A stretch of DNA of 64,000 nt from Xanthomonas albilineans (GTDB lineage: Bacteria > Pseudomonadota > Gammaproteobacteria > Xanthomonadales > Xanthomonadaceae). The DNA is taken from the NCBI RefSeq assembly GCF_002939705.1, contig NZ_MDCB01000015.1, positions 6,424-70,423 of the forward strand, given 5' to 3'. Position 1 is the stretch's first letter; every line of letters starts with the position of its first letter. Position numbers and translations under genes: made by a program. A model generated the notes under the pieces. That model made no database searches. It was not told the DNA's origin and was given only the letters and a program-made list of their open reading frames with translations. Positions 1 through 64,000 of the stretch are shown here, piece after piece.

Positions 1-3000
1 CACGCGGCAAGACGTTGCGGCGTCGCATGCGCGAATAACTCAGCCACGCCAATTTCGGCGCCCAGCTCCTGACGCAAGCGCGAGGCGACCCGCACCGCCA
101 ACAACGAATGCCCGCCAAGGGCGAAGAAGTTGTCGTGCCGACCAATCGTCTCCAGACCCAGCAAGTCACTCCAGATCGCGGCAATGGCCTGTTCGATTGC
201 GCCCTGCGGCGCTTCATACGCATGCGCGGCATAAGCCGATCCGTCCGGTGCAGGCAATGCCTTGCGATCCAGCTTGCCGTTCGGAGTCAGTGGCAGACGA
301 TCCAACTGCACATAGGCTGCCGGCACCATGTAATCCGGCAGCACATCCGATAGCCAACTACGCAAAGTTTCAGCGCACAGATGCTCCGACGTCACATCCT
401 CGGCGCCGACCCAATACGCCACCAATCCCTTGTCGCTGCCCGCCCCATCCTCCAGCGTCACCACCACGCACTCGCGCACATCCGCATGTGCGCTCAACCG
501 CGCCTCGATCTCGCCCAACTCGATGCGGAAACCGCGGATCTTGACCTGATGATCGTTGCGTCCGACAAACTCGATCGTCCCGTCGGCACACCAACGCCCC
601 AGATCGCCAGTGCGGTACATCCGCGCCGTTGGATCGGCGCTGAATGGATCGATGAGGAAGCGCGCGGCGGTCAAATCGTCGCGGTTCAAATACCCACGTC
701 CCACACCGTCACCACCGATATACAACTCGCCCACCACCCCGATCGGCACCGGCGCACCGTGTGTATCAAGGATGTAGATGCGCGTATTGGCCAGGGGCTT
801 GCCGATGGTGACAACCGAATCGTATTCGGTATCTTCCCTCAGATGTTCTGCAGTACAGGAAACGGTGGTCTCTGTCGGACCATAAGTATTGACAACCTCG
901 ATGCCGTGAGGCCGTAGCGCATACCACTCCCTTAGCTTCTGCGGAGATATGGCATCCCCTGTCACATTGAGAAGTCGCACGCCTTGCAGTTGCGCACGCG
1001 CCAGTTCCGGCGATTGCTTCCATGCACCGACAAGGCTATGCCAATGCGCCATCGTCAAATGCACGACCGCCACCCGTGGGTGCGACGATATATTTCCAGA
1101 CGCCTCATCGACAGCACCGAATATCGTTGGTGCGAGAACAAGTGCAGCGCCACCGAGCAAGGCAGGAAAGATTTCTTCCACCGAAAGATCGAAACTCATC
1201 GAATTCTGTTGCAAGACGAAATCGGAGTTCTTCACTCCAAACAACGTCACCGCATCCAACGCGTAGTTGCACAGATTCCTGTGTTCGATCATGACGCCCT
1301 TGGGCGCACCGGTTGATCCGGAGGTGTAGATCACATACGCCAAATGGCGTGCGGTCAGGCCATTGGCGTGGCGGTCGGGATTACTGTCTGGCAGATGCGT
1401 CCAATGTTCACTGTCGGCTTGCAGATCGACGATCACCGCCGCAGTGGCACTGCATTCAACCAGGCGACGACTGGCGGCATCCGTCAGCACCGCCACCGCG
1501 CCGCAATCGGATTGCATATAGGCCAGCCGCTCCGGCGGATAGGCCGGGTCCAGCGGAACATAAGCACCACCGGCCTTGAGCACCGCCAGCACCGCCACCA
1601 CCATCTCCACACTACGCTGCACACAGATCGCCACGCGATCGTCCGGGCGCACACCCAATCCGCGCAGGTAATGTGCCAACCGATTGGCTCGCGCATTCAA
1701 CTCGGCATACGTCAGCGACACCTCACCCTGCACCACCGCGATGGCCGAGGGATCACGCGCGACCTGCGCCTCGAACAACTCGTGCACACAGGCATCGCGC
1801 GGATAATCCGCTGCCGTTGCATTCCACTCCGTCAATACCTGTTGGCGCTCTGCCTCGCTCAGCAACGGCAGACGATCCACCGCCATATCTTCGGCACCCT
1901 CGGCCACCATCGTCGCCAACAGACGACGCCAATGCCCCATCCATCGCTCCATGGTCGAACGCTCGAAAAGCGAAGAATCAAAATCCAAAGCAAAAACTAT
2001 CTTATTTTCGCATTTAACCGTTTCCATGACAAGATCAAGCGCTGCCGCACCAGCAATCGGAGGACGACAGAAATGAGCAAGATGCAAACCACCCCAAGAT
2101 ACAGGTGCAAGATCGTCATCATCCACCAGAATATTCAGCGCATCAGAAGAGCCGCGCGCATCCTGAAACACAAACATGGTTTGAAAAAATGGCGAACGAC
2201 TTTTCTCGCGAGGAGGATTGAGTCTAGCCACAAGCTCGGAAAATGGAAAATCTTGGTTCTCCATTGCTCGCCTGACACGATTACGCACGATGCCCAGCAA
2301 TTCCCCGACGGTAAGGTCAGGATAAAAATCAGCGCGTAAGACGACCTGATTAAAGAAATTTCCGGTAACTTCAGACCATTTTCGCCCCTTCCTGGCAGGC
2401 ATCGGAGAGCCAACATGAAAAGCATCTTGCCCAGTAAGCCGACGAAGAAGAATAAAATAAGCGGTTAGAAGAACCACATAAAGCGATACATGACTGCGAA
2501 CTGCCAGCCCGCTCAATCTCATGGACAACTCTGCATCAAGATTGAAGGAGATAAAATCTCGGCACTTGGCGGGCAACACAGCAGACGGCGCAAGCACCGG
2601 CAAATCCAAGGATGGACACTGATCGGCAAGCATCTTCTGCCAATATGAAAATTGCTTGATACCTCCACTATCATTGAGCCATTCACGCTGCCAATTTACA
2701 TAACATGAATAAGTCGGCTTCAGTTCGCCGCCGCAGGAAACACATGGTTTCGATGGCATAATATCGCCATTTACATCCAAAATTTTTCCCAGCTCCTCGA
2801 TCAAACGCCAAAATGACCAACCATCCACCACAAGATGATCGAATGTCACCAAAATAACACTCTCTTGCGCACTAATTTTATAAAGATCGACCCTGAATAA
2901 CGAGGCCACCGTAACATCGAAAGCCCTTTTACTATCATTCTTGATTAGCGTCTCAAGAAATGAGGGTTCGAATCCAGACACATCAACTACTCGAAGTTGC

Positions 3001-3275
3001 GTCTTTACAAAGCGCTCGATTCTTTGCTGAGGCTCTGAGTTGAACTCACGGAAACGAGTACGCAGCGCCGCATGACGACTTGCCAGCACTGCAATCGCCT
3101 TTTCTAATTGATGAAGATCAACCTCACCAAGAAGACGTGCAAAGAAGTTCACATTGTAAGTTCCCTGCAAATCTGGCTGAAGCTTGTATAAAAACCACAA
3201 TGCACGCTGATTTTTAGATAATGAAAACCAGGTTTCACAATTCGCGTACTTGCAAATGTCGTAACCTTCATTCAT
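1..3275 (-). CDS. Non-ribosomal peptide synthetase, first module C-A-T (partial, runs off the window)
   Basis: This is the N-terminal 1091 residues of a multimodular NRPS in the cytoplasm. I see a condensation domain (about residues 15-430), an adenylation domain (about 470-960) and a thiolation domain (LGGHSL near 1053). The C-domain motif reads DHLVVDG, so the first His of HHxxxDG is Asp while the second, catalytic His is kept. Adenylation motifs YTSGSTG, YGPTE, YRTGDLG and NGKLDRK are intact. Lining up A4-A5 by eye gives the pocket code D-L-E-H-N-T-T-V-S, which I recall as a diaminobutyrate code. The ATG follows GAGGTGG by 7 bases. No other NRPS gene lies upstream, so the C domain may acylate the first residue (inference). 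Base composition drops sharply in the C-domain part. Confidence 0.93.
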   Translation of the reverse strand, partial: MNEGYDICKYANCETWFSLSKNQRALWFLYKLQPDLQGTYNVNFFARLLGEVDLHQLEKAIAVLASRHAALRTRFREFNSEPQQRIERFVKTQLRVVDVSGFEPSFLETLIKNDSKRAFDVTVASLFRVDLYKISAQESVILVTFDHLVVDGWSFWRLIEELGKILDVNGDIMPSKPCVSCGGELKPTYSCYVNWQREWLNDSGGIKQFSYWQKMLADQCPSLDLPVLAPSAVLPAKCRDFISFNLDAELSMRLSGLAVRSHVSLYVVLLTAYFILLRRLTGQDAFHVGSPMPARKGRKWSEVTGNFFNQVVLRADFYPDLTVGELLGIVRNRVRRAMENQDFPFSELVARLNPPREKSRSPFFQTMFVFQDARGSSDALNILVDDDDLAPVSWGGLHLAHFCRPPIAGAAALDLVMETVKCENKIVFALDFDSSLFERSTMERWMGHWRRLLATMVAEGAEDMAVDRLPLLSEAERQQVLTEWNATAADYPRDACVHELFEAQVARDPSAIAVVQGEVSLTYAELNARANRLAHYLRGLGVRPDDRVAICVQRSVEMVVAVLAVLKAGGAYVPLDPAYPPERLAYMQSDCGAVAVLTDAASRRLVECSATAAVIVDLQADSEHWTHLPDSNPDRHANGLTARHLAYVIYTSGSTGAPKGVMIEHRNLCNYALDAVTLFGVKNSDFVLQQNSMSFDLSVEEIFPALLGGAALVLAPTIFGAVDEASGNISSHPRVAVVHLTMAHWHSLVGAWKQSPELARAQLQGVRLLNVTGDAISPQKLREWYALRPHGIEVVNTYGPTETTVSCTAEHLREDTEYDSVVTIGKPLANTRIYILDTHGAPVPIGVVGELYIGGDGVGRGYLNRDDLTAARFLIDPFSADPTARMYRTGDLGRWCADGTIEFVGRNDHQVKIRGFRIELGEIEARLSAHADVRECVVVTLEDGAGSDKGLVAYWVGAEDVTSEHLCAETLRSWLSDVLPDYMVPAAYVQLDRLPLTPNGKLDRKALPAPDGSAYAAHAYEAPQGAIEQAIAAIWSDLLGLETIGRHDNFFALGGHSLLAVRVASRLRQELGAEIGVAELFAHATPQRLAA

Positions 3276-3489
3276 CGCAACCACCTCTTGGATTCCACCG
3301 ACTTCAGATTTGCGAAATTCGATATCAGGAAACAAAAGATCTCTCCAAATGTTATTAATTTAAGAACTAAAAGAATAAAAATAAATTCAATTCCATAATA
3401 TGAAATATTCATCACAAACCACTCGGCGTCCAAATAAGCAATCAAGCGATTTATCGAAGCAAAATCCGCGAAAATAAATTAACTAATGA
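3276..3489. other. AT-rich intergenic region upstream of the NRPS
   Basis: This stretch between the NRPS start and the IS remnant is much richer in A and T than the flanking core DNA. It presumably holds the NRPS promoter, but several TA-rich hexamers fit equally well and I cannot pick one. I see no ORF with coding character. Confidence 0.5.
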
Positions 3490-3515
3490 GGACCTCGAAC
3501 AACTCCTAACTTTGA

Positions 3516-3549
3516 TGCGTTTCGATGAATGTTGCGTTTCGATGAATGT
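3516..3549. repeat. 17-bp perfect tandem duplication
   Basis: The unit TGCGTTTCGATGAATGT occurs twice head to tail at 3516-3532 and 3533-3549, inside the left end of the IS remnant. It looks like a local slippage or repair product rather than part of the normal IS end. Confidence 0.85.
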
Positions 3550-3649
3550 TCGGCTGGCAATGCGTGTTGATTCGCCGCAGTACGGAACGTTCGGTAGCCA
3601 TCGTCGCCTTGATTGGCGGCGGCAACCGCGATGCGTGGATGCCACGCGT

Positions 3650-4447
3650 TCATACAGGTACAAGGCCAGCTTCCTGCAACCGTGCCAGACGCATCAGATT
3701 GTGGCTGGCCAACTTCAACCCAATCACCACCTTTGCACGTGCTAGGCCGAGCGTGCGTAGAGATTTGCCGCCTTGTTGCGCCAAGCGTGCGAACGCATAC
3801 TCGTCAAACACCCAATCTTTGGCGATGCGACCCCAGCGACGATCGACATTGGCGTGCAATTTGTAGCCGTAGTACGCGCTGCCGTGCTTGCTCGTCCAGC
3901 ATGAATCCACATCCTTCTGTGTGCGCTTGGCCTCATTCCACTGGCGCGGAATCTCCTCTCGCTTGATCTGCGCATTCTCCTCGCACGTGTTGTGCTGGAT
4001 CGGTACATTGACGATACTGGCGTCGATGATCTTCCCACCGCGGGCGATGTATCCGGCACGCGCCAACTGGCCGCTGATCGCCGCGCTGATGTCCCCCATC
4101 ACGTCCTTGTCCTTCAGCCGTTCGCACCACACCCAGATCGTCTTCGCATCCGGCACCTTGCCGCTGTCGTCCAGACCAAAAAACCGCACAAAACTGCGCC
4201 GATCCAGCAACTGATATTCCAACGATTCGTCGGAAAGGTTGCACAACCGGTGCAACAGCAGCACCCGGACCATCACTTCGGTTGGCCACGCTGGCCGCCT
4301 GCCCTTGGCCTCCGGCCCCAGCGATAGCTTCGCATCTACCGCACAGGCAATCCCGGCAAAGTCGATATGACCTGACAGCAACTCCAGCGGATCATTCAAC
4401 TCCTGGCGCTTGGCATCCCGTTCTTCACCGGCAAAAAAGTTGAGCAT
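3650..4447 (-). pseudogene. IS5-family transposase with internal deletion
   Basis: The reading frame of 265 codons starts like IS1478-type transposases (MLNFFAGEERD, then a DUF772-type N-terminal region) and keeps the first catalytic Asp in IIDASIVNVP. After YGYKLHANVDRR it jumps directly to RIAKDWVFDEYAFARLAQQ and GGKSLRTLGLARA, which in intact relatives lie near the C-terminus. The segment holding the second catalytic Asp (usually in a DKGY-type motif) is missing, about 70-80 residues by comparison with the usual length of roughly 330-340. The deletion is in frame, so the ORF stays open but should be catalytically dead. Family identity comes from remembered sequence patterns. Confidence 0.8.
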
Positions 4448-4676
4448 GTGTGTCGTTCTACACTGGCAGGATGTCAGATCAATGATCGCAGATTTCTGTG
4501 GTTTTTAGAGCCCCCATAATTTATATCAAAACATAAAATAAATAACACATGGCGCGCGCCGACGTTAACTATATTTTTATTTTTAATTAGTTAAAAATCA
4601 CAAAGTTTATTGTGCAAATAAATTATTACATAAATTGTACCATTTCCATTAATTTTCACTTGATTATCCCTGACTC

Positions 4677-4841
4677 TCAGCCATGAAAATTGCTCTCCGT
4701 GCGCAGAACCGGCTCTGGACAGGGCTTGCAACGCATCATCGCCGTGGCGAGTCGTGGCAGCATCTCACGCAGGCGGAACCGGCGATTGAAGCGGTAGGCG
4801 GCCTCGGCCAGATAGTCAGCCCTGAAAAACTCCGTATCGCT
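4677..4841 (-). pseudogene. C-terminal fragment of an IS1595-like transposase
   Basis: On the minus strand a 55-codon frame ends at a TGA (4677-4679) and reads FFRADYLAEAAYRFNRRFRL followed by REMLPRLATAMMRCKP. The YLAE-YRFNRR signature is typical of the extreme C-terminus of IS1595/IS1016-type transposases. The frame hits a stop just upstream at about 4842, and no catalytic domain remains nearby. It is therefore a relic of a separate insertion from the IS5 element next door. Confidence 0.6.
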
Positions 4842-4888
4842 TTACATGGCAAAGGTTCGACGCCCCAGCAGGCGTGCCTAGATGACGG

Positions 4889-5059
4889 GGAGCTTACGGC
4901 GGGACGAAGGCCGAACCATCAAGCCCTGAAGTCCTGGCAAGGCTGTCGCCATACCGGACATCGCACATCAACCGGTTCGGCGACTACACACTGGATCTCA
5001 ATCGGGAGATCGCGCCGATCGATTTTTCGCGAAAAATTCTCGCGGCGACAGTGAGTTAG
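4889..5059 (+). pseudogene. C-terminal fragment of a Tn3-family transposase
   Basis: The plus-strand frame ending with TAG at 5057-5059 contains PEVLARLSPYRTSHINRFG followed by DYTLDLNREIAPIDF. The LSPY-HINRFG-Y-L-L pattern matches the C-terminal end of Tn3-family TnpA proteins. Less than 60 of the usual ~1000 residues remain and no start codon is plausible. It abuts the IS1595-like relic in the opposite orientation, so this region collected and lost several elements. Identification is from memory of the family pattern. Confidence 0.55.
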
Positions 5060-5206
5060 GATAAAATTGACTGTTTTTTACACGAATCCCTGCCGACCCT
5101 CTAGTCGAATTACTACTCTCCCTCGATTTCGACCGACGTCCCCCTGCTCTGAGTAGAGTGTGGGTTTAAAATCCAAGAAGTCCATGACCCAACGGCTGGA
5201 CTATCC

Positions 5207-6394
5207 TTACGGCACCCGTGGCAAGCGCACCAGTGCGCATAACCCACCACCATCGTGGTTGGCGAATTCGAGGGTGCCGCCGTGGGCCTGACAGATCGCC
5301 GCGGCGATGGACAGGCCCAGGCCGCTACCGCCCGAGTGGCGAGCACGCGAATCGTCGGCACGCCAGAAGCGGTCGAGCATGCGCGGCAGTACCTCCGGCG
5401 CGACGCCAGGGCCACGGTCGGCGATACAGATCAGTACATGGCCATTCTCAAACCGTCCCTCGATCGACAGCTGCTTGCCGGCAGCGGCATAACGCAGCAC
5501 GTTGTCGATCAGCACCGACAGAACCTGGCCAAGACGGTCGCGATCAGCATGAATGCTCAGCTGTTCGGGGATACGCAGTTGCACCTCCATCCCGGCTTCC
5601 TTCAGCGACTGCGCCACCCAGGCGATGCGTTCGCTCACCAGCGCACCGATCGGGAAGTGCTGCGGCTCCAACAGCAACTGGTTGGCTCTGGCCATCGATA
5701 GCAAGTGCAGATCACCGACCAGGCGGTTGATCTGCTCCAATTGGCGCTGCACCATCGACAACTGTTCCGCACTGCTCGGGAAGACGTCATCGAGCATGCC
5801 CTGTATCCGCCCCATTGCCGCGTTGAGCGGGGTGCGTAGCTCATGCGCCAGCATCGCACTGGATTCGCGCACTTCGCGTTCGTATTGCTGCAACTGTGCA
5901 GTCATGCTGTTGAAGTCGATGGCCAAGCCGGCTAGTTCGTCAGGCGCACCCGGCACCACGCTGGCGCGGGCGGCGAAATCGCCGTCGCGGATCCGTCGCG
6001 CGGCCTCGGCCACGTTGGAGAACTGTCGCGATAATGGGCGCGATGCAATCAGCCCACAGATCACGATCACCGGAATCGACGCCAGCACCATCTCCGCCAG
6101 CAGCCACCAGTCGCGGCTGGCCAGTCCAGGCAGGAGATCGGCCACGTCGTAATAGGTTTCGAACAGTTGCCATAGGCGTTGCGCGTTGCTGTGCGGTTCC
6201 TCGCGCAATTGCAGCATCTCCTGTCGCGCCTGCGGCGGTAACCGACGCAGGGTGGAGAAATCCCAGATGGCGAAGCGTAGCACCATCCCCAGCGCGATCA
6301 CCACGATGGTCAACACCGCCAGCGCGCTCATGCGCAGCCCTACCCATTGCCACAGCGGCGCGTGCGCGTTGCGACGGCACAATGGCCATCTCAT
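5207..6394 (-). CDS. Sensor histidine kinase (BaeS/AdeS-like)
   Basis: This 395-residue inner-membrane kinase probably senses membrane or drug stress and phosphorylates the regulator encoded just upstream. A first membrane segment lies around residues 20-45 and a second around 115-135, followed by a HAMP region (AEAARRIRDGDF). The dimerisation helix carries the phospho-acceptor His in MLAHELRTPLN, and the ATPase domain has LIDNVLRY (N box), ADRGPGV (G1) and GSGLGLSI (G2). Its ATG overlaps the regulator's stop by 4 bases, so the pair is translationally coupled. The periplasmic loop is about 70 residues, compatible with a small sensing domain. The genomic setting points to control of the divergent efflux operon. 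Confidence 0.93.
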   Translation of the reverse strand: MRWPLCRRNAHAPLWQWVGLRMSALAVLTIVVIALGMVLRFAIWDFSTLRRLPPQARQEMLQLREEPHSNAQRLWQLFETYYDVADLLPGLASRDWWLLAEMVLASIPVIVICGLIASRPLSRQFSNVAEAARRIRDGDFAARASVVPGAPDELAGLAIDFNSMTAQLQQYEREVRESSAMLAHELRTPLNAAMGRIQGMLDDVFPSSAEQLSMVQRQLEQINRLVGDLHLLSMARANQLLLEPQHFPIGALVSERIAWVAQSLKEAGMEVQLRIPEQLSIHADRDRLGQVLSVLIDNVLRYAAAGKQLSIEGRFENGHVLICIADRGPGVAPEVLPRMLDRFWRADDSRARHSGGSGLGLSIAAAICQAHGGTLEFANHDGGGLCALVRLPRVP

Positions 6395-7080
6395 CGGAAG
6401 CGATAACCGATTGCGCGGACTGTCACCAGCAGACCATGGATCCCCTCCTGCTCCAGCTTCTTGCGCAGGTTATGCACGTGCGCGTCCACGACACGCTCCA
6501 GCGCATCGCTATCGGGCAGGCAGATTTCCAGCAGTTCGTTGCGGGTGAAAGCTTTGAACGGGGTCTTCATCAGCGTCGCCAGGAGATTGAACTCGGTCGG
6601 CGTGAGTTCCAGCGGCAATTCGCGGCCCTGGTCATCGCGCACCGTGGCCCGCACCGCGGCAGTATCGACACTTAGCCGTTCGTGGCGCAATGGCTCTTCG
6701 CTTCCTCGTGCCGGTCCGGTACGGCGCAACACCGCGTAGACCCGCGCCACCACCTCCTTGGGGCTGTACGGCTTGACCACATAGTCGTCGGCGCCGTAAC
6801 GCAGTGCGCCGAGTTTTTCCGGCTCATCGCCCATCGCGGTGACCATAATCACCGGCGTATCGCCGCTGCGGCGGATCGTGGACAGCACCTCGGTACCGCT
6901 GAGCATGGGCAACATGATATCCAGCAGTACCAGGTCGGGCTTCCATTGCGCATGCAGCCTCACCGCCTTTTGGCCATCCTCGGCCACCGCAACCTCAAAG
7001 CCATCGCGGCGCAGGTAGGCCTCAAGGATGCTGGCGCTGTCCGCATCGTCTTCGACCAGCAAGATCTTCTTTGCATGCAT
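6391..7080 (-). CDS. OmpR/PhoB-family response regulator
   Basis: This 229-residue DNA-binding regulator has a receiver domain (residues 4-118) with the acidic pair in LVEDDAD, the phospho-acceptor Asp in LVLLDIMLP and the conserved Lys in VVKPYSP. A winged-helix output domain follows (LTPTEFNLLATL to HVHNLRKKLE and AIGYRFR). It is cotranscribed with the kinase gene and divergent from the RND efflux genes, 98 bases apart. This is the same arrangement as AdeRS or BaeSR systems. The shared intergenic region contains GGAAT-N7-ATTCC at 7098-7114, a possible but unproven binding site. Confidence 0.93.
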   Translation of the reverse strand: MHAKKILLVEDDADSASILEAYLRRDGFEVAVAEDGQKAVRLHAQWKPDLVLLDIMLPMLSGTEVLSTIRRSGDTPVIMVTAMGDEPEKLGALRYGADDYVVKPYSPKEVVARVYAVLRRTGPARGSEEPLRHERLSVDTAAVRATVRDDQGRELPLELTPTEFNLLATLMKTPFKAFTRNELLEICLPDSDALERVVDAHVHNLRKKLEQEGIHGLLVTVRAIGYRFR

Positions 7081-7178
7081 GAAATGGAACCCTTCATGGA
7101 ATCTTGAAAATTCCTAAAAAGCGGCTTGAACATGCCCGCCGATACTGACGGCCTAGATTGGATACCGGACCACCCGTC

Positions 7179-8648
7179 ATGATTCTAACGTCCTGCTCCC
7201 GCCCTCGCCGTCACGCCCGCCCACTGCTCTGCCTGCTCGCGATCGCGTTGGGAGGCTGCTCCCTGGCGCCGGTCTACCAGCGTCCGCAGACAGCACTGCC
7301 GCCTACGCTGGGAGCGGCCACGGCGGTGGCCGCAACCGCACATGATACCGCCACGACCACCGTGGTCACACTGAACCCAGAGGAACAGCGGTTCGTGCAT
7401 GCCTTCTCTCCACAGCAGGATTTAACTGCGTTGGTGACCCAAGCCTTGGCGCACGCCCCAGACTTCCGCAACACCGTGCTGCTGGTCCAGCAGGCGCGGG
7501 CGCAGTACCGCATCGAACGCGCGCAGCAACTGCCGCAACTTGGCATCAACGCACAAGGGGTACGGCAGAGCTACGACAACCCGGCAACCCAAGCACGTTA
7601 CGGACAGAAGCTGTACACCGCTGCGGTGGGCGTGGATGGCTTCGAACTGGATCTGTTCGGTAAGCTGGCTTCGTTGTCGGCTGCCGCACAGCAACGTTAT
7701 CTGGCCTCGCGCTATGGTCAACAAGCCGCGCGCGGCGCGCTGATCGCCGAAGTGCTGCGGGCCTACACCGTCGAGCGCGCCGCCGCGCAGGCTGAGCAGC
7801 GGCTACAGGCCATCGCCGAGCACACGAGCGCGCTGCAGGCGATTGCCAACCGACAGCACGAGGTGGGGCTGCTCTCCACCGACGCGCTGAACAGCCAACG
7901 CCATCAGTGCGATCAAGCCCAGGTCCGTGCCTTGCAGGCCAGCAGCGACCACGCCGCGGCCAGACGCGCGCTACAACTGCTGACTGGCTATAACACGCCC
8001 GACAACGCCGGCACGCTGCAATCGCTACTGCCGGACGCGGACAGTGCCAACACTGCGGCATGGCGCGAACTGGATTCACAGTTGCTGCTGCAACGACCGG
8101 ATATTCAGCAAGCCGAGGCCGAGCTGCGCGCGCGCAATGCCGACATCGGCGCGGCACGCGCCGCCTTCTTTCCATCGATTCAGCTGAGTACATCGCTGGG
8201 TACGGCCAGCGACAGTCTCAACGGCCTGTTCATGCCTGGCAGCCGCAGTTGGAGCTTCATTCCGCAACTGTTCATGCCGATTTTCGATGCTGGCCGCAAC
8301 CGCGCCAATCTGGACATCGCGCAACTGCGCAAGGATGGCGCGGTGGCCGATTATGAGAAAGCCGTGGAAGCGGCCTTCCGCGAGGTCGCCGACGCGCTCG
8401 ATGCCCTGCCCGCCTTGCAACAGCGCGAACAACGCGAGCGTGCCAACGCCGAGCGCGAACACCAACGGGTGGCGCGCCTGCAACAGCGCGTGGCGCAAGG
8501 ACTGCAAGATCGCACCGACCTGCTCGCCGGCAACCTCCAGGCCGAACAGGCCGAACTGGAGCAACTGCAGGCACGCCAGGCCTTGCTGCTCAATCGCATC
8601 GCCCTGTTCCACGCGTTCTACGGCGTGCAACTGCCACACGCGTCCTGA
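7179..8648 (+). CDS. RND efflux outer membrane lipoprotein (OprM/NodT family)
   Basis: This is the outer-membrane channel of a tripartite pump. The N-terminus has a lipoprotein signal with lipobox LGGCS followed by LAPVYQRP, typical of the NodT/OprM family. Two repeated outer-membrane-efflux domains follow; the second begins near LLQRPDIQQAEAELRA and contains ARAAFFPSIQLS. Length (489 residues) is normal. I chose the ATG at 7179 because an upstream in-frame TTG at 7158 would place extra residues ahead of the signal peptide. It is the first gene of a four-gene operon; usually the channel gene is last. Confidence 0.92.
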   Translation: MILTSCSRPRRHARPLLCLLAIALGGCSLAPVYQRPQTALPPTLGAATAVAATAHDTATTTVVTLNPEEQRFVHAFSPQQDLTALVTQALAHAPDFRNTVLLVQQARAQYRIERAQQLPQLGINAQGVRQSYDNPATQARYGQKLYTAAVGVDGFELDLFGKLASLSAAAQQRYLASRYGQQAARGALIAEVLRAYTVERAAAQAEQRLQAIAEHTSALQAIANRQHEVGLLSTDALNSQRHQCDQAQVRALQASSDHAAARRALQLLTGYNTPDNAGTLQSLLPDADSANTAAWRELDSQLLLQRPDIQQAEAELRARNADIGAARAAFFPSIQLSTSLGTASDSLNGLFMPGSRSWSFIPQLFMPIFDAGRNRANLDIAQLRKDGAVADYEKAVEAAFREVADALDALPALQQREQRERANAEREHQRVARLQQRVAQGLQDRTDLLAGNLQAEQAELEQLQARQALLLNRIALFHAFYGVQLPHAS

Positions 8649-8679
8649 TTTCGCCCTCTCCCCCCTCACGAGGTTACTC

Positions 8680-9507
8680 ATGAACCCTGTCTGTTCCGCC
8701 CTGTCTTCGGCGCTGGCCGTGGCCATGCTGGCACTGCCCATATGTGTGCATGCCACCGATGCCGACATCCCGTCGCACGCTGCAAATGCCGGTCTCTTTG
8801 GCGACAAGACCGAACTCAGCATCGGTGCCGGCGCCATGTTGACACCGCGCTATGCCGGCTCCGCCGACGACCGCCTCCAGGGCGTGCCGGTGTTTTCCCT
8901 GCAGCGCGGCATTGTGTTCGTGGATAGTGTCCGCGGTGCTGGCGTGCAATTTCAGAATGCACATGGTTTCTCCGCCAGCCAATCGTTTTACTACGATCTA
9001 GGGCGGCTGCAACGCAATAGCGCTTGGCGTCCTGGCTCGGCTCGGTTGGCCGGCATGGGCGACGTCCCCGGCACGATCACCGCGCGCAGTTTTGTCATGC
9101 AGCAACTCACACCTTCCGTGGCGTTGCAGGCGGAAGCCGAATTCGCGCTCAAGGAAAGCGCCCGGCGCAACCGCTACCGCGCCGGTGCCCAGTTCACTCT
9201 GCTGCATACCCCCACCGACAACGTCACCATGGACCTGAATGCCCATTGGGGCGACCGCCGTTTCAACCAGTCCTATTTCGGCGTCGATGCCGCGCAGAGC
9301 GCCGCCAGCAACTTCCGACCATACCGTGCTGATGCGGGAATGTATGCCTATTCGGTCGGCGCCGACTGGGATCACACGCTCTCCCCGCACTGGACCGTCT
9401 CGCTGCTGCTCAACGCCACGCGCTATGTTGGCGCGACCGATGGCAGCCCCGTTGTGCAGCGCCACGCCTTCGCCAGCATCGGCGCCACCATGACCTATAC
9501 CCGCTGA
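8680..9507 (+). CDS. MipA/OmpV-family outer membrane protein
   Basis: This 275-residue exported protein has a signal peptide ending near ICVHA. Motifs include GAGAMLTPRYAGS near the mature N-terminus, and alternating aromatic strands run to a C-terminal beta-signal-like end (IGATMTYTR). This fits the MipA/OmpV family of small beta-barrels, some of which scaffold murein hydrolases while others are linked to drug resistance. The ATG at 8680 follows ACGAGG by 7 bases, which rejects a longer frame reading back into the channel gene. It sits between the outer-membrane channel and the adaptor of the RND system, so it is probably cotranscribed and functionally linked. Confidence 0.87.
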   Translation: MNPVCSALSSALAVAMLALPICVHATDADIPSHAANAGLFGDKTELSIGAGAMLTPRYAGSADDRLQGVPVFSLQRGIVFVDSVRGAGVQFQNAHGFSASQSFYYDLGRLQRNSAWRPGSARLAGMGDVPGTITARSFVMQQLTPSVALQAEAEFALKESARRNRYRAGAQFTLLHTPTDNVTMDLNAHWGDRRFNQSYFGVDAAQSAASNFRPYRADAGMYAYSVGADWDHTLSPHWTVSLLLNATRYVGATDGSPVVQRHAFASIGATMTYTR

Positions 9508-9530
9508 TCGTGACCAGGACACCGCCGACC

Positions 9531-10649
9531 ATGACATCACGTCACATCCTTCTTCTCACCCTGTTCCTGTCGCTGGCCATGCTGTCGCTGTCAGGCTGCA
9601 GCCAGGACACAACGCCGGTGGCCGATGCGCCACGCGCGGTCAAACTGGAAATCGTCGCCAGTGGTGCTGACCAGGACAGCGAACGCTTCGTGGCACAGGT
9701 GCGTCAGCAGCAGCGTGCCGAACTCGGTTTCGAGGGCGGCGGGCGCATCGCCGACATCGCCGTGGATATCGGCGACCGGGTGCATGCGGGTCAGGTCCTG
9801 GCACGCCTGGATCCGGAACCGAACCGGCTGCGCCTGCAACAGGCCGAGGCCAACGTCGGCATCGCCAGCGCCGATCTGCAACAGCAGCAGACTCAGCTCG
9901 CTCAACAGCAAGCGATGTTCGACGACGGCGCCACGTCGGCAGCCACCCTGACCGCCGCTAAAAGCAGCTTCGCCGCGTCTCAGGCGCGGGTGCGCAGCGC
10001 GCAGTCGGAATTGGCCCTGGCGCGCCGCGCTGTGCGCCAATCGGAGTTGCGCGCACCGTTTGACGGTAGCGTGGTGGCCCGCTTGCAGCAGCCGGACGCG
10101 CTTGTCGGTGCCGGCCAGGCCGTGCTGCAAGTGGATGGCCAGGACCATGCGCAGGTCGTCGCCACGTTGCCGGCGGCGCGCGCGGCGACCCTGCAGCCAG
10201 GTCAGGAGATCGCCGCTTACCGCAGCACCGCACCCGAACACGGGTTGCCGCTGCGGCTACGCAGCGTCTCCACACGCGTGGAGGGCGGCGCCACCGTGCA
10301 AGCGCTGTTCGACAGCGCCTCCGCTGTTGCACAATTGCACGCTGGCGAAACCCTGTTGCTGGCACTGCCGACCGCCGGCTCCGTGCAACCGCCAAGCGTC
10401 CCGCTCAGTGCACTGATCCCAAGCATGGGCAACCAGAAGATGATGCTCTTCGTGTACCGTCAGGACAGCCGGACTGTGCGTCGGCGTCAAGTCGATACTG
10501 GGCGCATCGAAGGCGAACGCGTGCAAATCCTCGGCGGCCTGCGCACAGGCGAATACATCGTCGCCACTGGCGCCGCCTTTCTTCACGACGGCCAGGCCGT
10601 CGTCCCGTTCCATCCCGCGACCCGTCTCAGCAGCAGCACCACGCCATGA
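9531..10649 (+). CDS. RND periplasmic adaptor (membrane fusion protein)
   Basis: This 372-residue lipoprotein (lipobox LSLSGC) links the inner-membrane pump to the outer-membrane channel. It shows the barrel-sandwich half motif near IGDRVHAGQVLARLDPEP, a long helical hairpin rich in Gln and Ala (residues about 95-170), the second half motif APFDGSVVARL and a beta-barrel region. A GTG at 9510 is in frame, but the ATG at 9531 gives a clean lipoprotein signal. The stop overlaps the pump ATG by 4 bases (ATGA), indicating translational coupling. Confidence 0.92.
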   Translation: MTSRHILLLTLFLSLAMLSLSGCSQDTTPVADAPRAVKLEIVASGADQDSERFVAQVRQQQRAELGFEGGGRIADIAVDIGDRVHAGQVLARLDPEPNRLRLQQAEANVGIASADLQQQQTQLAQQQAMFDDGATSAATLTAAKSSFAASQARVRSAQSELALARRAVRQSELRAPFDGSVVARLQQPDALVGAGQAVLQVDGQDHAQVVATLPAARAATLQPGQEIAAYRSTAPEHGLPLRLRSVSTRVEGGATVQALFDSASAVAQLHAGETLLLALPTAGSVQPPSVPLSALIPSMGNQKMMLFVYRQDSRTVRRRQVDTGRIEGERVQILGGLRTGEYIVATGAAFLHDGQAVVPFHPATRLSSSTTP

Positions 10650-13600
10650 ACCTGACCCGCGCCACCCTCCATTCGCACCGCCTCGCGCTGTTCAGCGCTG
10701 CACTGATCCTGATCGGCGGCATCATCACCTTTCTCGGTTTCCCCTCGCAGGAAGAGCCCAGCGTGACCGTGCGCGATGCGATCGTGCAAGTCGGTTTCCC
10801 CGGCATGTCCAGCGAGCGCGTGGAAAACCTGCTGGCGCGACCGATCGAGGAACGGCTACGCGAGATCAGCGGGCTGAAAAAGATCGTCACCACCATCCAC
10901 CCCGGCAGCGCGATCGTGCAGGTGACCGCGCAGGACAGCGTCAAAGATCTTGCGGCGCTGTGGCAACGCGTGCGCAGCAAAGCGGCCGAGGCTGGCGCGC
11001 AGTTACCGCAAGGCACGCAGGGGCCGATGGTGGACGACGACTTTGGCCGCGTCGCCATCGCCTCGATCGCAGTCACGGCACCGGGCTTCAGTAGCGCCGA
11101 GATGCTCGGGCCGCTGCGACAGCTGCGTGCGCAACTGTACACTGTGCCTGGCGTGGATCGCGTCACCTTCCACGGTCTGCGGGACGAACGCGTCTACGTC
11201 GCGTTCGACCGTACTCGGCTCGGCGAAGCCGGCCTCACCCCCGCCGCAGTGGCGCAGCAGTTGCGTGCGCAGAACGTGGTCACCGGCGGTGGCCTGGTCG
11301 CCGCATCCGGATTGGCCATGACCGTCACCACCTCCGGTGAGGTGCGCGACCTCGACGACCTGCGCAAGACCCTGATCGCCACGCAAGGCGCCGACGGCCC
11401 GCGACAGATCCCGCTGGCGCAGTTGGCGAAGATCGCGTTGATGCCGGTAGATCCGCCCGAAGCTGGCGCGATCTATCAAGGCCAGCCGGCGGTGGTAGTG
11501 GCGGTATCGATGGCGCCCGGCAATAACGTCGCCGAGGTGGGCAAGGCCTTGCGGCTCAAGCTGACCGAGACCGCCAAACTGCTGCCGGTGGGATTTTCCC
11601 AGCATGTCGTCACCTTCCAGGCCGACGTGGTCGAGCGCGAAATGAGCAAGATGCACCACGTCATGGGCGAAACCATCGTCATCGTGATGGCCGTGGTGAT
11701 GCTGTTCCTGGGCTGGCGTACCGGCCTGATCGTCGGCGCGATCGTGCCGCTGACCATCCTCGGCGCCCTGATCGTGATGCGTGCGCTGGATGTGGAACTG
11801 CAAACCGTGTCCATCGCCGCGATCATCCTGGCGCTTGGCCTGCTGGTGGATAACGGCATCGTCATCGCCGAGGACATCGAACGGCGCCTGACCGCAGGCG
11901 AACCCCGTCGCGAAGCTTGCGAGGCAGCCGGACGAACCCTGGCGATTCCGTTGCTGACGTCCTCGCTGGTGATCGTGCTGGCATTCTCGCCGTTCTTCTT
12001 CGGCCAGACCAGCACCAACGAATACATGCGTTCCCTGGCGATCGTGCTGGCGGTGACGTTGCTTGGCTCGTGGTTGCTCAGCATCACCATCACGCCGCTG
12101 TTGTGCATGTATTTCGCGCGACCGCATGTGTCCGCCCATGGCGAGGACCATGGCGAAACCTACGATTCGAAACCGTACCGTCTGTATCGGCGCATCATCG
12201 AGGGGCTGCTGGCGCACAAGACGCTGTTCCTCGGCAGCATGCTGGCGTTGCTGACGCTGGCGGTGACGGTGTTGCTATCGATTCCCTATAGCTTTCTGCC
12301 CAAGTCCGACCGCCTCCAGTTCCAGATGCCGGTGACCCTGCAACCAGGCAGCGATGCGCGCCAGACGCTGCGCACCGTGCAATCGATCAGCCAATGGCTG
12401 GCCGATCGCAAACAGAACCCGCAAATCGTGGACAGCATCGGTTACGTCGCCGACGGCGGGCCGCGCATCGTGCTTGGACTGAACCCACCGTTGCCGGCGG
12501 CCAACATCGCCTACTTCACCATCAGCGTGGTGCCTGGCACCGATGTCGATGCGCTGATCGCCAAGGTCCAGCGGCATCTGCGCCAGCAATATCCAACGGT
12601 ACGCGCCAACCCCAAGCGGTTCTCGCTTGGGTCGACCGAATCGGGTGTGGCCATCTATCGCGTGATCGGCCCGGACGAAGCGCAGTTGCGTCGGCTCGCC
12701 GCCGGCATCGCGGAGGCGTTGCGCTCGCTACCGGGAACCGTTGACGTGAGCGATGACTGGGAAAGCCGCATCCCGCGCTACGATGTGCGCGTGGACCAGG
12801 CCAAGGCGCGGCGCGCCGGCATCAGCAGCGACGACATCGCCCAGGCACTGCAGTTGCGCTACAGCGGCATGGACGCCTCGTTGATCCGCGACGACGGGAC
12901 CAATGTGCCGATCGTCCTGCGCGGAGGTTTCGAAGAGCGCGAACGCGGGCGCGATCCCGGCACGACTCTGATCTACCCGCAGTCCGGTGGCGCGCCGCTG
13001 CCCTTGGCATCGATCGCCGATATCCGCCTGAGCGCTGAACCTTCGACGATCATGCGTCGTAACCTGAGCCGCGCGATCACCGTCACCGGACACAATCCGC
13101 AACTCACCACCGACCAGATCGTCACCGCATTGGCCGACAAGGTAGCGGCACTGAAGCTGCCGCCAGGCTACCGCATCGAAATGGGCGGCGAACTGGAGGA
13201 CGCCGCCGAAGCCAACCAGGCCCTGTTGCAGTACATGCCACATGCGTTGGGCGCGATCCTGCTGTTGTTCATCTGGCAATTCAATTCGTTCCGCAAGCTG
13301 TTCATCGTCATCGCCAGCATTCCGTTCGTACTGATCGGCGCCACACTCGCCCTGCTGGTGACCGGCTATCCGTTCGGCTTCATGGCCACCTTCGGCCTGC
13401 TCGCGCTGGCCGGCATCATCGTCAACAACGCGGTGCTGTTGCTCGAACGTATCGAGGCAGAACTGGCTGATGGCCTCAGCCGGCACGAGGCGGTGATCGC
13501 GGCGGCACTCAAACGCCTGCGCCCGATCGTCATGACCAAACTCACCTGCATTGTCGGTCTGATTCCGCTGATGCTGTTCGCTGGGCCATTGTGGACCGGC

Positions 13601-60784: not shown

Positions 60785-61087
60785 ATGAGCATGTTCGATG
60801 TATCGATGAACTGGTTACACCCCTTGGCGGACACCAGCCTGGGGGATTACGTCTTCTTCCGGCTGATCAATACCTACCTCAGCAACCAGATCGACACCTT
60901 CGGCATGGAAGTGATGGCCCGCGCCATGCAATGGGTAAGCGTCATCGCGCTAACCGCCACCACCTTCTGGGTGCTGTTGCTGGGCTATCGGATCGCCAGC
61001 GGACAATTACGCGAATCGGCCATGGCGACCATGATCAAGGCCGGCAAGGTGTCGGTGATCCTGGGCATCGACGTACTCCCGCCCTGA
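60785..61087 (+). pseudogene. Truncated virB6 (type IV secretion channel protein)
   Basis: The 100-codon frame reads MSMFDVSMNWLHPLADTSLG then FFRLINTYLSNQIDTFGMEV and MARAMQWVSVIALTATTFWV, followed by LLGYRIASGQLRESAM. This matches the N-terminus of xanthomonad VirB6/TrbL-type proteins, which are normally around 300 residues or more with several membrane helices. After KVSVILGI the sequence changes and stops at DVLPP. No other virB gene is nearby. It is most likely a fragment left by deletion or insertion at about 61070. Confidence 0.7.
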
Positions 61088-61251: not shown

Positions 61252-61971
61252 TCACGTTTCCAGTTCAAAATGCAGACCGTGCGCGTAGAGGTACGAGAGG
61301 AGGTCGCTGCCATCACGCAACCCGAGCTTGGCCAATCCGCTGTACTTGTGTGTCATCACAGTGCTGTAACTGCGCCCGGTGCGCTCTCCAATCTCCGCAG
61401 CCTTCTCGCCACGACTGAACGCGAGCAGGATCGATTTTTCGGCGTCCGTCAACGACGTCCAAGGATGCGCCTTGATACTGTCCAGATCGATTCGGCTGTC
61501 CAGATAGCGACAACCCGAGCCAACCGCCTCGATGGCATGCGCGAGTTCCGTTGCAGCACTCGTCTTTGCCACATACCCCAAAGCGCCGACTTGGAACACC
61601 GCATTCGCTAGAAATGCGCTTTACTCTGCGGTGTAGACAAGCACCTGTGCTGTCGGATCTGCCGCCATTACCGCATGCACCAAACGCGCCCGCTTGAGCT
61701 TGCCGGGCATCACCAGGTCAAGCACCACCAGCAGGGTCTCATCGCCGGGATGATTCGCGCAGGCATCCAGCAACACCGCACTCTCATGGAAGATGATGCA
61801 GTGCGAGTCCGGCACGGCAAAGACCGTGGAAAGCAGTTGCAAAACAGCGAATGTCGTCGACGGATGATCGTCGGCGATGAAATACTTGCGGTGCCTCGCA
61901 TCCACTTGGCTTGTTCCCTTGTGGCCCGCAGGTCCACCATTGATCGTCCAGTCCATCACTGCGTGTTCCAT
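61252..61971 (-). pseudogene. NarL/LuxR-type response regulator interrupted by a stop codon
   Basis: Two frames on the minus strand are in the same phase and separated only by a TAA at 61621-61623. The first (61621-61971) is a receiver domain with FIADDHPSTT and the phospho-Asp in VVLDLVMPG, ending in LVYTAE. The second continues with SAFLANAVFQVGALGYVAKT (conserved Lys) and a LuxR helix-turn-helix (LTDAEKSILLAFSRG, RSYSTVMTHKYSGLAKLG). A single GAA/GAG to TAA change explains the break. Suppression or a sequencing error cannot be excluded. Confidence 0.82.
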
Positions 61972-62039: not shown

Positions 62040-63125
62040 TCACTTACTTTGCATGGATCGCATGTAGGAATCGAACGGCTCCATCTCCATGACCTCTCGC
62101 CTCTGATCCAGCGATGCCTTGTCCTGAATCGGATACGGCTCGACCTTTCCACCGTCCTCGCTGAACTGGGAGCCGTAGATCTGATCCTTTCCTTGGTACA
62201 TGCGCAGCCGATCGATCATCAGCGCGTAGTCATGGCGCACCATCTCGCCACGTAGCATCAGCGGGCGTGCCTTTGCGAGTGCGTCCCGGATCAACTCAGG
62301 GCTGTGGGAGTGCTGCACAAGGATGAAGAACTCCATGACCCCCTTGCGACCGACCATCTGCGCGTCAGGGAAGCCATGCTCCTTGAGCACCTGTGTCACA
62401 AACACCGCGTTCTTGGCGTCGTCCGCATCAGCGGCCTTCGCTTCCACGGAATTTGCGCCTGTTCCTGCCTGATCCCACACCTCTCTTAACTTCTGGTCTC
62501 TCGCGTACCGCTCATCCAAAGACCGCCTCAGATCGGCATGCGTGATGGGTGGCGGTCGCTGGCACAAGGCGGTCGCACCGATCACCTGGCCGTAGGGTAT
62601 TCCGACAGCGATCAGGTCGTTGGCGGCACGAAGATCCAGCGCAATCGGAGCCAGTCCCAGATCATCACGTTCCTGGTTCACGGCCATCGCATTCAAGCCC
62701 TGCGGCAATCTGAGCACTCCATTCTTGAATTCGGGGAACGCACCATACGTCTGCTTTTTACCGCGCGAGAGCGACACGCGGTCGGCCAGCGATGCGTACC
62801 CCCGTGGATCGACGTCATCACCAACACGCTCGTACAGCGCGTCCATGAGCATTCTCTGTAACTTACTGTCGCCACGCGACGCCAGAACGATGGGCCCGAG
62901 GGCATTAACCCCTTCGCATCCGACTTGGCCTTCGGTCGGCACTCCGCCATCCAGCACCTTTGCCACTTCGTGCAGATCTTCTGGCCTGAAAGGCCCACCG
63001 CGCGCTTTGGTTTGGAAGGCCAGAAGTTTTTCCCGCACATCCGGCTGAGCGATCCCTGTAGCGTGCGCGGACGCCGCCAGGACGCCTAGAAACAAACAGA
63101 TCCAAACTCTTACCAGTCTACGCAT
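62040..63125 (-). CDS. Secreted protein with DUF6624-like domain
   Basis: This 361-residue protein has a signal peptide (MRRLVRVWICLFLGVLAASA, cleavage near AHA). The first half holds a helical region with GYASLADRVSLSRGKKQTYG. The second half has the pattern DAKNAVFVTQVLKEHGFPD, QHSHSPELIRDAL, ALMIDRLRMYQGKDQIYGSQ, which matches my memory of DUF6624 proteins (His/Asp-containing repeats and a QxYG end). Enzymatic role is unknown. GAGG lies 6 bases before the ATG. It starts 7 bases after the ATP-grasp gene and is surely cotranscribed. Confidence 0.82.
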   Translation of the reverse strand: MRRLVRVWICLFLGVLAASAHATGIAQPDVREKLLAFQTKARGGPFRPEDLHEVAKVLDGGVPTEGQVGCEGVNALGPIVLASRGDSKLQRMLMDALYERVGDDVDPRGYASLADRVSLSRGKKQTYGAFPEFKNGVLRLPQGLNAMAVNQERDDLGLAPIALDLRAANDLIAVGIPYGQVIGATALCQRPPPITHADLRRSLDERYARDQKLREVWDQAGTGANSVEAKAADADDAKNAVFVTQVLKEHGFPDAQMVGRKGVMEFFILVQHSHSPELIRDALAKARPLMLRGEMVRHDYALMIDRLRMYQGKDQIYGSQFSEDGGKVEPYPIQDKASLDQRREVMEMEPFDSYMRSMQSK

Positions 63126-63132
63126 CACGGCC

Positions 63133-64000
63133 TCACCCAAGGTGCTTGTCAAGATGTTTCGTATCGACTGCTCCGGACGCGGCAAGCTGCCGGGCCAGTT
63201 GTTTGTACCGGCTGGAGTCGCAGATAAGCTGCAACTCCAAACTGTTGAAGTCAATGGCTCCGGGCCGTGGTTGGCCCGGCATCAGACCGATGACAAATTC
63301 GCAGAATCCAGCCAACGCCCTCATCTCAGGCAGGTAGTCTTCAATCCAGAGAAATTGCCCTTGCTGATTCACTTCGACAAATACGAAATCGCCTGCGCAA
63401 TCCACGATGAAGTCAAAACACCCCATGTCCAGTGACATCTCATCCAAAAGAGCGACACATTTATCGTGGATTGCTGCGGGTAGCTTGGTTGGGCTCAAGA
63501 CACCCTGCAAGTCGTTGATGGCGCGCCAGTCGATAGCGCCGACATCTGTCGATTGAGAGTCAATTCGAACCGAATACTCCCGCCCCCCAAGAAAGGTGGA
63601 GCGCACCTCATACTTCTTTCTAACGTGGGACTGGTAGATGGCCGGGACGGCGCGAACGACGTCCATGTCGATCATATCTCCAACGACGATCTCCGATGTG
63701 TAGTTCTCCAGCACACGGCCCTTCTCGAACCATGTCATAGACCCGAAGGTCTTGAAGATAGTCCCCTGGCCCTTTGCCTTGCAAGCCTCGATGAATTGCC
63801 CGATTTCATCGGGATCATTGCTGATCAACGTAGGGGGAATCTTGAAGCCCAAGCCAGAGGCGTGCTGCAGTTGCTGAATTTTGCTTTCACCATTCAAGCG
63901 AGAAGCCGGCGAATGAATCCATCTGGCAGAGGACGACAATGGTGACCAGAAGAACCCGAAAAATTCAGCGTTGTCCACAGCGGCAAACTTTCGGTCATCG
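63133..64000 (-). CDS. ATP-grasp ligase, graspetide (MvdC/MvdD-like) type, partial
   Basis: The frame is open to the window edge; the visible 288 codons are the C-terminal part. It contains WIHSPASRLNGESKIQQLQ and PPTLISNDPDEI (substrate-side region of MvdD-type ligases), the ATP-binding Lys in GTIFKTFGS, the QSHVRKKYEVRSTFLGG strand and the DFIVDCAGDFVFVEVNQQGQ metal-binding end (Glu and Asn ligands in VEVNQQG) followed by FLWIED. Microviridin and related ligases form lactones or lactams in precursor peptides. Other ATP-grasp peptide ligases remain possible. A GTG at 63978 is not the true start because DDRKFAA precedes it in frame. Confidence 0.85.
   Translation of the reverse strand, partial: DDRKFAAVDNAEFFGFFWSPLSSSARWIHSPASRLNGESKIQQLQHASGLGFKIPPTLISNDPDEIGQFIEACKAKGQGTIFKTFGSMTWFEKGRVLENYTSEIVVGDMIDMDVVRAVPAIYQSHVRKKYEVRSTFLGGREYSVRIDSQSTDVGAIDWRAINDLQGVLSPTKLPAAIHDKCVALLDEMSLDMGCFDFIVDCAGDFVFVEVNQQGQFLWIEDYLPEMRALAGFCEFVIGLMPGQPRPGAIDFNSLELQLICDSSRYKQLARQLAASGAVDTKHLDKHLG

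What the first reader, a model, noticed from the sequence alone, without database searches (positions are those of the whole stretch)
62040..64000. ATP-grasp peptide ligase paired with a secreted DUF6624-like protein: candidate graspetide-like locus
The ligase has the C-terminal signature of microviridin/graspetide maturases, with the intact metal-binding VEVNQQG and the WIED end. It is followed by a secreted protein only 7 bases later. Graspetide clusters usually encode a short core peptide next to the ligase and an exporter. A secreted protein of unknown family as the partner is unusual and may be a protein substrate or a processing or resistance factor. The upstream part is off the window, so the precursor was not seen.
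Basis: partly seen in the sequence, partly recalled or inferred. Interest (0 to 1): 0.75.

Follow-up and report, generated by a model that had tools for sequence, protein, structure and literature searches.

The report
Graspetide cluster with secreted DUF6624 partner
The window ends inside a bacterial gene cluster that very probably makes, cuts and exports a ring-closed peptide (a graspetide); its neighbour of unknown family, DUF6624, looks like a secreted protein that most likely meets the peptide only after export.

Summary
In detail: an ATP-grasp ligase (window 63133 to past 64000, minus strand) and, 7 bases on, a signal-bearing DUF6624 protein (62040-63125). Reading past the window completes the predicted cluster: a 67-aa precursor with a double-glycine leader and an Asp/Lys/Thr-rich core, a C39-peptidase ABC exporter and an HlyD adaptor. 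The unit occurs twice in this Xanthomonas genome (94.4% DNA identity); the enzymes are under purifying selection, the predicted cores have diverged. The ligase matches graspetide synthetases, though below curated cut-offs, and not RimK. DUF6624 beside such ligases recurs (8 of 14 DUF6624 places in 20 Xanthomonas genomes) and is already in print. Fresh parts: 15 of 15 chosen intact ligase-adjacent DUF6624 proteins pass a signal-peptide rule (ATP-grasp control 6 of 118), against a cytoplasmic tailoring role; the window protein is a tandem of two DUF6624 domains; and in 42 of 80 related loci, mostly Legionellales, a different signal-bearing HEAT-repeat protein sits by the ligase, never together with DUF6624. 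Verdict: a real graspetide cluster, a new member of a known kind, with a testable idea about its secreted partner.

The parts
62040..63125 (-). DUF6624 protein, 361 aa, signal peptide then two tandem DUF6624 domains (N-terminal one degenerate)
   Evidence: Pfam PF20329 77.1 bits, 2 stretches at E up to 0.1; a local self-trained HMM finds both domains; signal rule met; model pLDDT 95.3
63133..64000 (-). ATP-grasp graspetide-synthetase-like ligase, 382 aa, cut by the window end (whole gene L003:7133-8281). The rest of the cluster lies past the window, all minus strand, in L003 coordinates (window position minus 56000): hairpin 8300-8325; candidate precursor 8350-8553, 67 aa, MQNDDNSKRVMGYVHARELSNQEISQVSGG/DDDDGGDKQKKNGTKITVGTGGSGGGSNGTGSQRSDR; C39-peptidase ABC exporter 8622-10808, 728 aa; HlyD adaptor 10801-12135, 444 aa
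   Evidence: Ligase: TIGR04187 160.3, MvdD 134.3, MvdC 131.0 bits, all under cut-off; PDB AMdnB/CdnC matches. Precursor: leader scan, GGAG before the start. Exporter: Peptidase_C39 114.5, ABC_tran 110.9, ABC_membrane 106.1 bits; adaptor: HlyD_3 61.4 bits. Hairpin:
61252..61971 (-). LuxR-type response regulator, broken into two frames here (61252-61599 and 61621-61971), one frame of 239 aa in copy B and F10; inside the duplicated unit
   Evidence: ORFs; GerE 27.2 bits in the first piece, Response_reg under cut-off in the second, both over cut-off in copy B; duplication limits

Best explanation
This is one of two copies of a graspetide gene cluster in a Xanthomonas genome. The cytoplasmic ATP-grasp ligase activates Asp side chains in the core of the 67-aa precursor with ATP and joins them to Lys or Thr side chains, making lactam or lactone rings. 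The C39 domain of the ABC exporter then cuts after the Gly-Gly of the leader, and the exporter with HlyD (and an outer-membrane channel encoded elsewhere) passes the peptide out. The DUF6624 protein is secreted to the periplasm and acts there on the exported peptide or its target, as a periplasmic binding or self-protection factor or as a late processing factor; it is not a cytoplasmic tailoring enzyme. Shown by sequence: gene content, order, families, the second copy, selection on the genes, the signal-type N-terminus. Inferred: ring chemistry, cleavage site use, export, and the role of DUF6624.
For: Complete cluster next to the window. Ligase aligned with the solved graspetide-type ligases AMdnB and CdnC over the ATP-grasp part, including the E-x-N motif. 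Copy B: same genes, 94.4% over 6,962 bases; omega ligase 0.217, DUF6624 0.172, ABC 0.117, HlyD 0.203, against core 0.829 with leader kept. Same order HlyD-ABC-precursor-ligase-DUF6624 in G000:C28, G019:C1, G019:C4, G002 and G178, and the same five genes in another order in Pseudoxanthomonas sp. GM95. Of 80 related ligase loci, 52 carry a C39-ABC-type match over 450 bits and 56 an HlyD match, many loci being cut by contig ends. Signal rule: 15 of 15 chosen intact ligase-adjacent DUF6624 proteins against 6 of 118 ATP-grasp proteins given the same freedom of start. A Legionella ligase of graspetide group 8 gave triply dehydrated peptides in E. coli (PMC9576775, section 11 read).
Against: All NCBIfam matches of the ligase are under the curated cut-offs (best 160.3 bits against 350). 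The core has its carboxylates first (DDDD) and its Lys/Thr after, the reverse of the order I recall for microviridins, so ring formation there is not certain. No product or expression evidence. 39 of 47 DUF6624 places counted in the family are not within 3 kb of a detected ligase, so DUF6624 has a life outside these clusters. DUF6624 copies A and B differ little although the cores differ much, which speaks against core-specific immunity.
Confidence: 0.85

Rival explanations
1. DUF6624 is a graspetide biosynthetic (tailoring) enzyme or ligase partner that works on the precursor in the cytoplasm, like the MirC partner of rosaritide.
For: Carter et al. [quoted passage not shown] Q249, H250, D283, R284, Q293 and R321 of the mature protein are invariant in 36 aligned rows, as in an enzyme.
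Against: 15 of 15 chosen intact ligase-adjacent DUF6624 proteins pass a signal-peptide rule that 112 of 118 ATP-grasp proteins fail under the same freedom of start; DUF6624 without a nearby ligase is common. A periplasmic enzyme acting after export is not excluded.
Confidence: 0.15
2. DUF6624 is the immunity protein of a graspetide bacteriocin and protects the producer from its own peptide in the periplasm.
For: Signal-bearing; copy B lies a few kb from a type IV coupling-protein gene and a Lipase_3 gene and the F10 copy beside genes that by eye are of the same kind (no family search run), a setting of rivalry between bacteria; copies without a nearby ligase would suit orphan immunity genes; a different secreted protein fills the place in other clades.
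Against: DUF6624 of copies A and B stay 92% identical (omega 0.172) while the cores are 59% identical; residues invariant across the family look more like a fixed pocket than a fast-evolving immunity surface.
Confidence: 0.35
3. The ligase is a housekeeping RimK-type or other non-RiPP ATP-grasp enzyme and the neighbours are coincidence.
For: No Pfam family is reached by the ligase at E up to 0.1.
Against: RimK model 14.2 bits against cut-off 143.4; graspetide-type ligases are the best solved relatives; the five-gene set recurs.
Confidence: 0.03
4. The DUF6624 protein itself is the substrate of the ligase.
For: Adjacent, 7 bases apart, possibly translationally coupled.
Against: A small precursor with leader and core is encoded in the same operon; DUF6624 has its own signal-type N-terminus; DUF6624 occurs without the ligase.
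Confidence: 0.03

Closest known systems
DUF6624-associated graspetide groups 18, 20, 23 and 42 (Carter et al. 2026, PMC13097080)
   Same: Graspetide ligase with DUF6624; groups 18, 20 and 23 also often with an NHLM-type transporter, as here.
Xanthomonas graspetide loci with precursor clusters 70/75, branch 3 (Makarova et al. 2022, PMC8939145)
   Same: Same genus, graspetide-type ligases; C39 peptidase exporters and HlyD are among the commonest neighbours in that survey; leaders similar, cores variable. Their cluster 23, many members with signal peptide and lipoprotein site and conserved His and Arg, may be DUF6624 (not tested).
   Different: Whether these exact precursors are in clusters 70/75 was not testable here.
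Gra-7, group 8 graspetides of Legionella pneumophila (PMC9576775)
   Same: A ligase from the genus that dominates a large neighbouring clade in the tree; precursor plus ligase gave triple dehydration in E. coli, placed in the core of precursor A by LahT150 digestion (that LahT150 is a C39-type protease is recalled).
   Different: Related Legionellales loci carry a HEAT-repeat protein instead of DUF6624; that the Gra-7 ligase itself lies in this clade is inferred.
Microviridin (MvdC/MvdD, MdnB/MdnC)
   Same: ATP-grasp family, E-x-N motif, leader plus core precursor.
   Different: 131-134 bits against cut-offs of 425-475; no microviridin leader or core motif (core motif recalled); one ligase, C39 exporter and DUF6624 present.

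Membership tests
Graspetide biosynthetic cluster | ATP-grasp ligase of the graspetide-synthetase kind | tested here: met
   Best models are graspetide maturases (TIGR04187 E 6.2e-47); solved relatives AMdnB, CdnC
Graspetide biosynthetic cluster | Adjacent precursor with leader and a core holding Asp/Glu and Ser/Thr/Lys | tested here: met
   67-aa ORF with Gly-Gly leader; [DE]DDDG...KKN[GR]TK[IV]T in four copies, aligned by eye
Graspetide biosynthetic cluster | Side-chain lactone or lactam rings in the product | not testable with these tools
   Needs mass spectrometry
Graspetide biosynthetic cluster | C39 exporter for the Gly-Gly leader (common, not universal) | tested here: met
   Peptidase_C39 114.5 bits in the ABC protein, HlyD next to it
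NCBIfam TIGR04187 / MvdC / MvdD families as curated | Score over the curated cut-off | tested here: not met
   160.3 of 350, 131.0 of 425, 134.3 of 475 bits
Microviridin | PFFARFL leader and TxKxPSD core (core motif recalled) | tested here: not met
   The precursor sequence as read holds neither
DUF6624 (PF20329) | Score over gathering cut-off | tested here: met
   77.1 bits against 27
RimK-type ligase | TIGR00768 over cut-off | tested here: not met
   14.2 bits against 143.4
Graspetide groups 18/20/23/42 of Carter et al. | Membership in the similarity network of the paper | not testable with these tools

The most novel reading that the evidence does not exclude
C39-exported graspetide clusters of Pseudomonadota have a fixed place for a dedicated secreted partner next to the ligase, filled by unrelated proteins: DUF6624 in Lysobacteraceae and a few others, a HEAT-repeat protein in Legionellales and some further gammaproteobacterial assemblies. 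The partner handles the ring-closed peptide only after export (holding, final maturation or self-protection), so DUF6624 is not a cytoplasmic tailoring enzyme.
Probability: 0.45. Interest if true: 0.6.

Novelty: new member of a known kind. Interest (0 to 1): 0.45.

Why it matters
DUF6624 is a family of unknown function that recurs beside graspetide ligases and has been proposed as a possible new class of biosynthetic enzyme. The signal-type N-terminus, found in 15 of 15 chosen ligase-adjacent proteins and rare in the ligase control, moves the question to the periplasm, and the HEAT-repeat partner, never seen together with DUF6624 in 80 loci, gives a second system in which to ask it. Two copies with the same machinery and different cores in one genome are a natural comparison for what the ligase and the partner recognise.

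Tried and rejected

Against my reading: only 8 of 47 DUF6624 places in 198 family genomes are within 3 kb of a detected ligase. Of the 8 of 80 named loci with DUF6624, L141 (52 bits) and L170 (a short fragment, 61 bits, other strand) are weak and L136 is broken. In G017, one of the 8 adjacent genus places, a transposase-like ORF lies between the two genes and the ligase frame is short. In the tree several DUF6624 rows sit on long branches and the bootstrap had not settled. The signal-peptide rule is home-made. Its first control (5 of 118 ATP-grasp) gave the ligases fewer start codons to try than DUF6624; with equal limits the figures are 11 of 15 against 2 of 118 (first 40 codons), 15 of 15 against 6 of 118 (60) and 15 of 15 against 9 of 118 (150). 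The 15 are intact proteins that I chose; the L170 fragment and a piece of the broken GPE 39 gene, also beside ligases, were counted among the other rows and fail; 26 of 35 other DUF6624 rows and 36 of 41 HEAT rows pass.

Full report
What was checked. The window is G000:C15:6424-70423 of a 3.68-Mb, 148-contig genome. The record is unnamed; named records with close copies are Xanthomonas sp. F10 (74% ligase identity) and Xanthomonas sp. GPE 39 (about 92% over the remaining piece), which by place and contig length are G019 and G016, both of the window's genus, so the genus is Xanthomonas. Because the cluster is cut by the window end, I read 7.6 kb further (L003; L003 position plus 56000 gives window position).

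The complete cluster. In the direction of transcription the genes are: HlyD adaptor (444 aa), C39-peptidase ABC exporter (728 aa), a 67-aa candidate precursor, the ATP-grasp ligase (382 aa), the DUF6624 protein (361 aa) and a LuxR-type response regulator. The precursor is MQNDDNSKRVMGYVHARELSNQEISQVSGG/DDDDGGDKQKKNGTKITVGTGGSGGGSNGTGSQRSDR: a double-glycine leader, then a core of Asp, Lys and Thr; GGAG stands before its start codon. After its stop codon a hairpin of 11-12 pairs without a T-run is predicted in the four copies looked at, perhaps to protect the precursor messenger (inference).

Two copies with different cores. A second copy lies on contig C28; the shared block is 6,962 bases at 94.4% and includes the response regulator and HlyD. 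Its predicted core is DDDDGGHCPKKNRTKVTTGTGGGGTGETLCDY. Counting changes by the Nei-Gojobori method in my own script, omega is 0.217 (ligase), 0.172 (DUF6624), 0.117 (ABC), 0.203 (HlyD), 0.258 (leader, only 4 changes) and 0.829 (core, 32 codons). The machinery is kept, the core drifts or is diversified. F10 has EDDDGDDGDGKKKNRTKVTVGTPSNGTGNSRSDR and GPE 39 DDDDGGGDKPKKNGTKITVGTGGNGTGSTRADH. In GPE 39 only two separate pieces of the ligase gene are found and DUF6624 is split over two frames, so the cluster looks dead there. In the window's copy, of the genes named only the response regulator is broken.

The ligase. Pfam has no match. NCBIfam puts it with ATP-grasp ribosomal peptide maturases: TIGR04187 160.3 bits, MvdD 134.3, MvdC 131.0, grasp-with-spasm 80.1, all under the curated cut-offs, and RimK 14.2. 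The best solved relatives are AMdnB, CdnC and two chains named ATP grasp ligase (5ig8, 5ig9); the EVN motif aligns with E-x-N of these. In a tree of 92 related ligases copies A and B, F10 and Pseudoxanthomonas sp. GM95 form a clade (100/99), in the neighbourhood of a 49-row clade (100/97) of mostly Legionellales. A ligase from that genus has been tested by others: Gra-7 of Legionella pneumophila, graspetide group 8, gave triply dehydrated peptides when precursor and ligase were expressed together in E. coli (PMC9576775, passages and section 11 read). That the Gra-7 enzyme falls inside the clade is my inference.

The association with DUF6624. In the 20 genus genomes held, DUF6624 has 14 places (15 rows, two of them one frame) and 8 of the 14 lie within 3 kb of a ligase hit; in one of the 8 (G017) a transposase-like ORF lies between. 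In 198 genomes of the family, 8 of 47 places do, in four genera (six weak rows of each list left out). The order HlyD-ABC-precursor-ligase-DUF6624 is kept in G000:C28, G019:C1, G019:C4, G002 and G178; in the last three the small ORF between exporter and ligase has an SCGG leader and a core such as DTLIIIVVEAVDTETVIIFS. In Pseudoxanthomonas sp. GM95 the order is DUF6624-precursor-ligase-HlyD-ABC. A third ligase/DUF6624 pair sits on G000:C5 with two more Gly-Gly peptides and exporter genes nearby. On the tree the DUF6624 label needs 7 changes (shuffled mean 15.0, 0 of 500 as low), at least 3 of them forced by well-supported branches, so the pairing arose or was lost several times.

What DUF6624 is. 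By a fixed signal-peptide rule, 15 of 15 chosen intact ligase-adjacent proteins pass; of ATP-grasp proteins 6 of 118 pass when given the same 60-codon limit (9 of 118 with 150 codons). Of other DUF6624 rows 26 of 35 pass; two of the nine failures are fragments beside ligases (L170, and a piece of the broken GPE 39 gene). The window protein holds two DUF6624 domains (two Pfam stretches at E up to 0.1; 112 and 189 bits with a model trained on these loci). In an alignment of 36 members Q249, H250, D283, R284, Q293 and R321 (mature numbering) are invariant; by eye the N-terminal copy keeps the Asp-Arg and the first Gln but not the Gln-His. The model of the mature protein is mostly helical and confident (mean pLDDT 95.3), with no telling match among solved structures. 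A set of invariant polar residues suggests a pocket; whether catalytic or binding cannot be told.

A second kind of partner. Of the 80 loci kept from the named-genome scan (the best 80 of 142 confirmed), 42 have a HEAT-repeat protein next to the ligase and 8 have DUF6624; none has both. In 33 of the 34 HEAT loci in which HlyD is also found, the HEAT gene lies between ligase and HlyD. Three HEAT proteins scanned match Pfam HEAT_2, 36 of 41 pass the signal rule, and the model of one has an N-terminal alpha/beta part before the repeats (best fold matches are HEAT/ARM-type repeats, best E 0.004, none at 0.001), so it does not look like a disguised DUF6624. I read this as a place in the cluster for a secreted partner that can be filled by different proteins. 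The other 30 of 80 loci have neither next to the ligase, some of them cut by contig ends.

How it most likely works. The ligase closes rings in the cytoplasm, the C39 exporter removes the leader and exports, and DUF6624 meets the peptide in the periplasm. I give 0.85 to the graspetide reading and about 0.8 to DUF6624 acting outside the cytoplasm. Between holder or self-protection, and late processing enzyme, the evidence does not decide; the stability of DUF6624 while the core changes speaks against strict core-specific immunity.

What is known. Carter et al. (PMC13097080; [quoted passage not shown] Makarova et al. (PMC8939145; passages, section 7 and part 2 of section 6 read) describe Xanthomonas graspetide loci and a cluster 23 of proteins, many with signal peptide and lipoprotein site, with conserved His and Arg, which may be the same family; if so, secretion was partly noted before. 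A search of the held library for DUF6624 found only the Carter paper.

Noticed in passing
L097, L100, L104, L098 and 38 further loci: A signal-bearing HEAT-repeat protein sits next to the graspetide-type ligase, in 33 of 34 cases with HlyD found between the two, mostly in Legionellales; conserved Cys, His and Cys residues in alignment A4.
   Followed up: partly
window 61252-61971: LuxR-type response regulator broken into two frames in this copy, one frame in copy B (L004:7361-8080) and F10.
   Followed up: partly
L004:3-2626 and L004:14752-15450; L191:1-5179: Copy B lies a few kb from a Lipase_3 gene, a small lipoprotein-like gene without a Pfam family, and a type IV coupling-protein gene; the F10 copy lies beside genes that by eye are type IV secretion and lipase genes (no family search). 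This suggests an island for rivalry between bacteria.
   Followed up: partly
window 60785-61087: 100-aa ORF similar to part of a longer F10 protein that by eye is a type IV secretion (VirB6-like, recalled) protein; apparently a remnant.
   Followed up: no
L181 (G000:C5:74000-90000), 821-12021: Third ATP-grasp/DUF6624 pair of the genome with two Gly-rich double-glycine peptides, HlyD and an ABC exporter match in the neighbourhood.
   Followed up: no
L189 and L190 (G016, Xanthomonas sp. GPE 39): The same cluster is decayed: two distant pieces of the ligase gene, DUF6624 split over two frames.
   Followed up: partly
L178:4334-6943: A close two-domain DUF6624 relative without a ligase follows a gene with a weak transposase-type match (Pfam rve, 24.9 bits, under cut-off).
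   Followed up: no
L151:9472-11090: Several tandem small ORFs with RVLGRxLAVEE-type leaders beside one ligase in a Lysobacter assembly, with differing cores.
   Followed up: no
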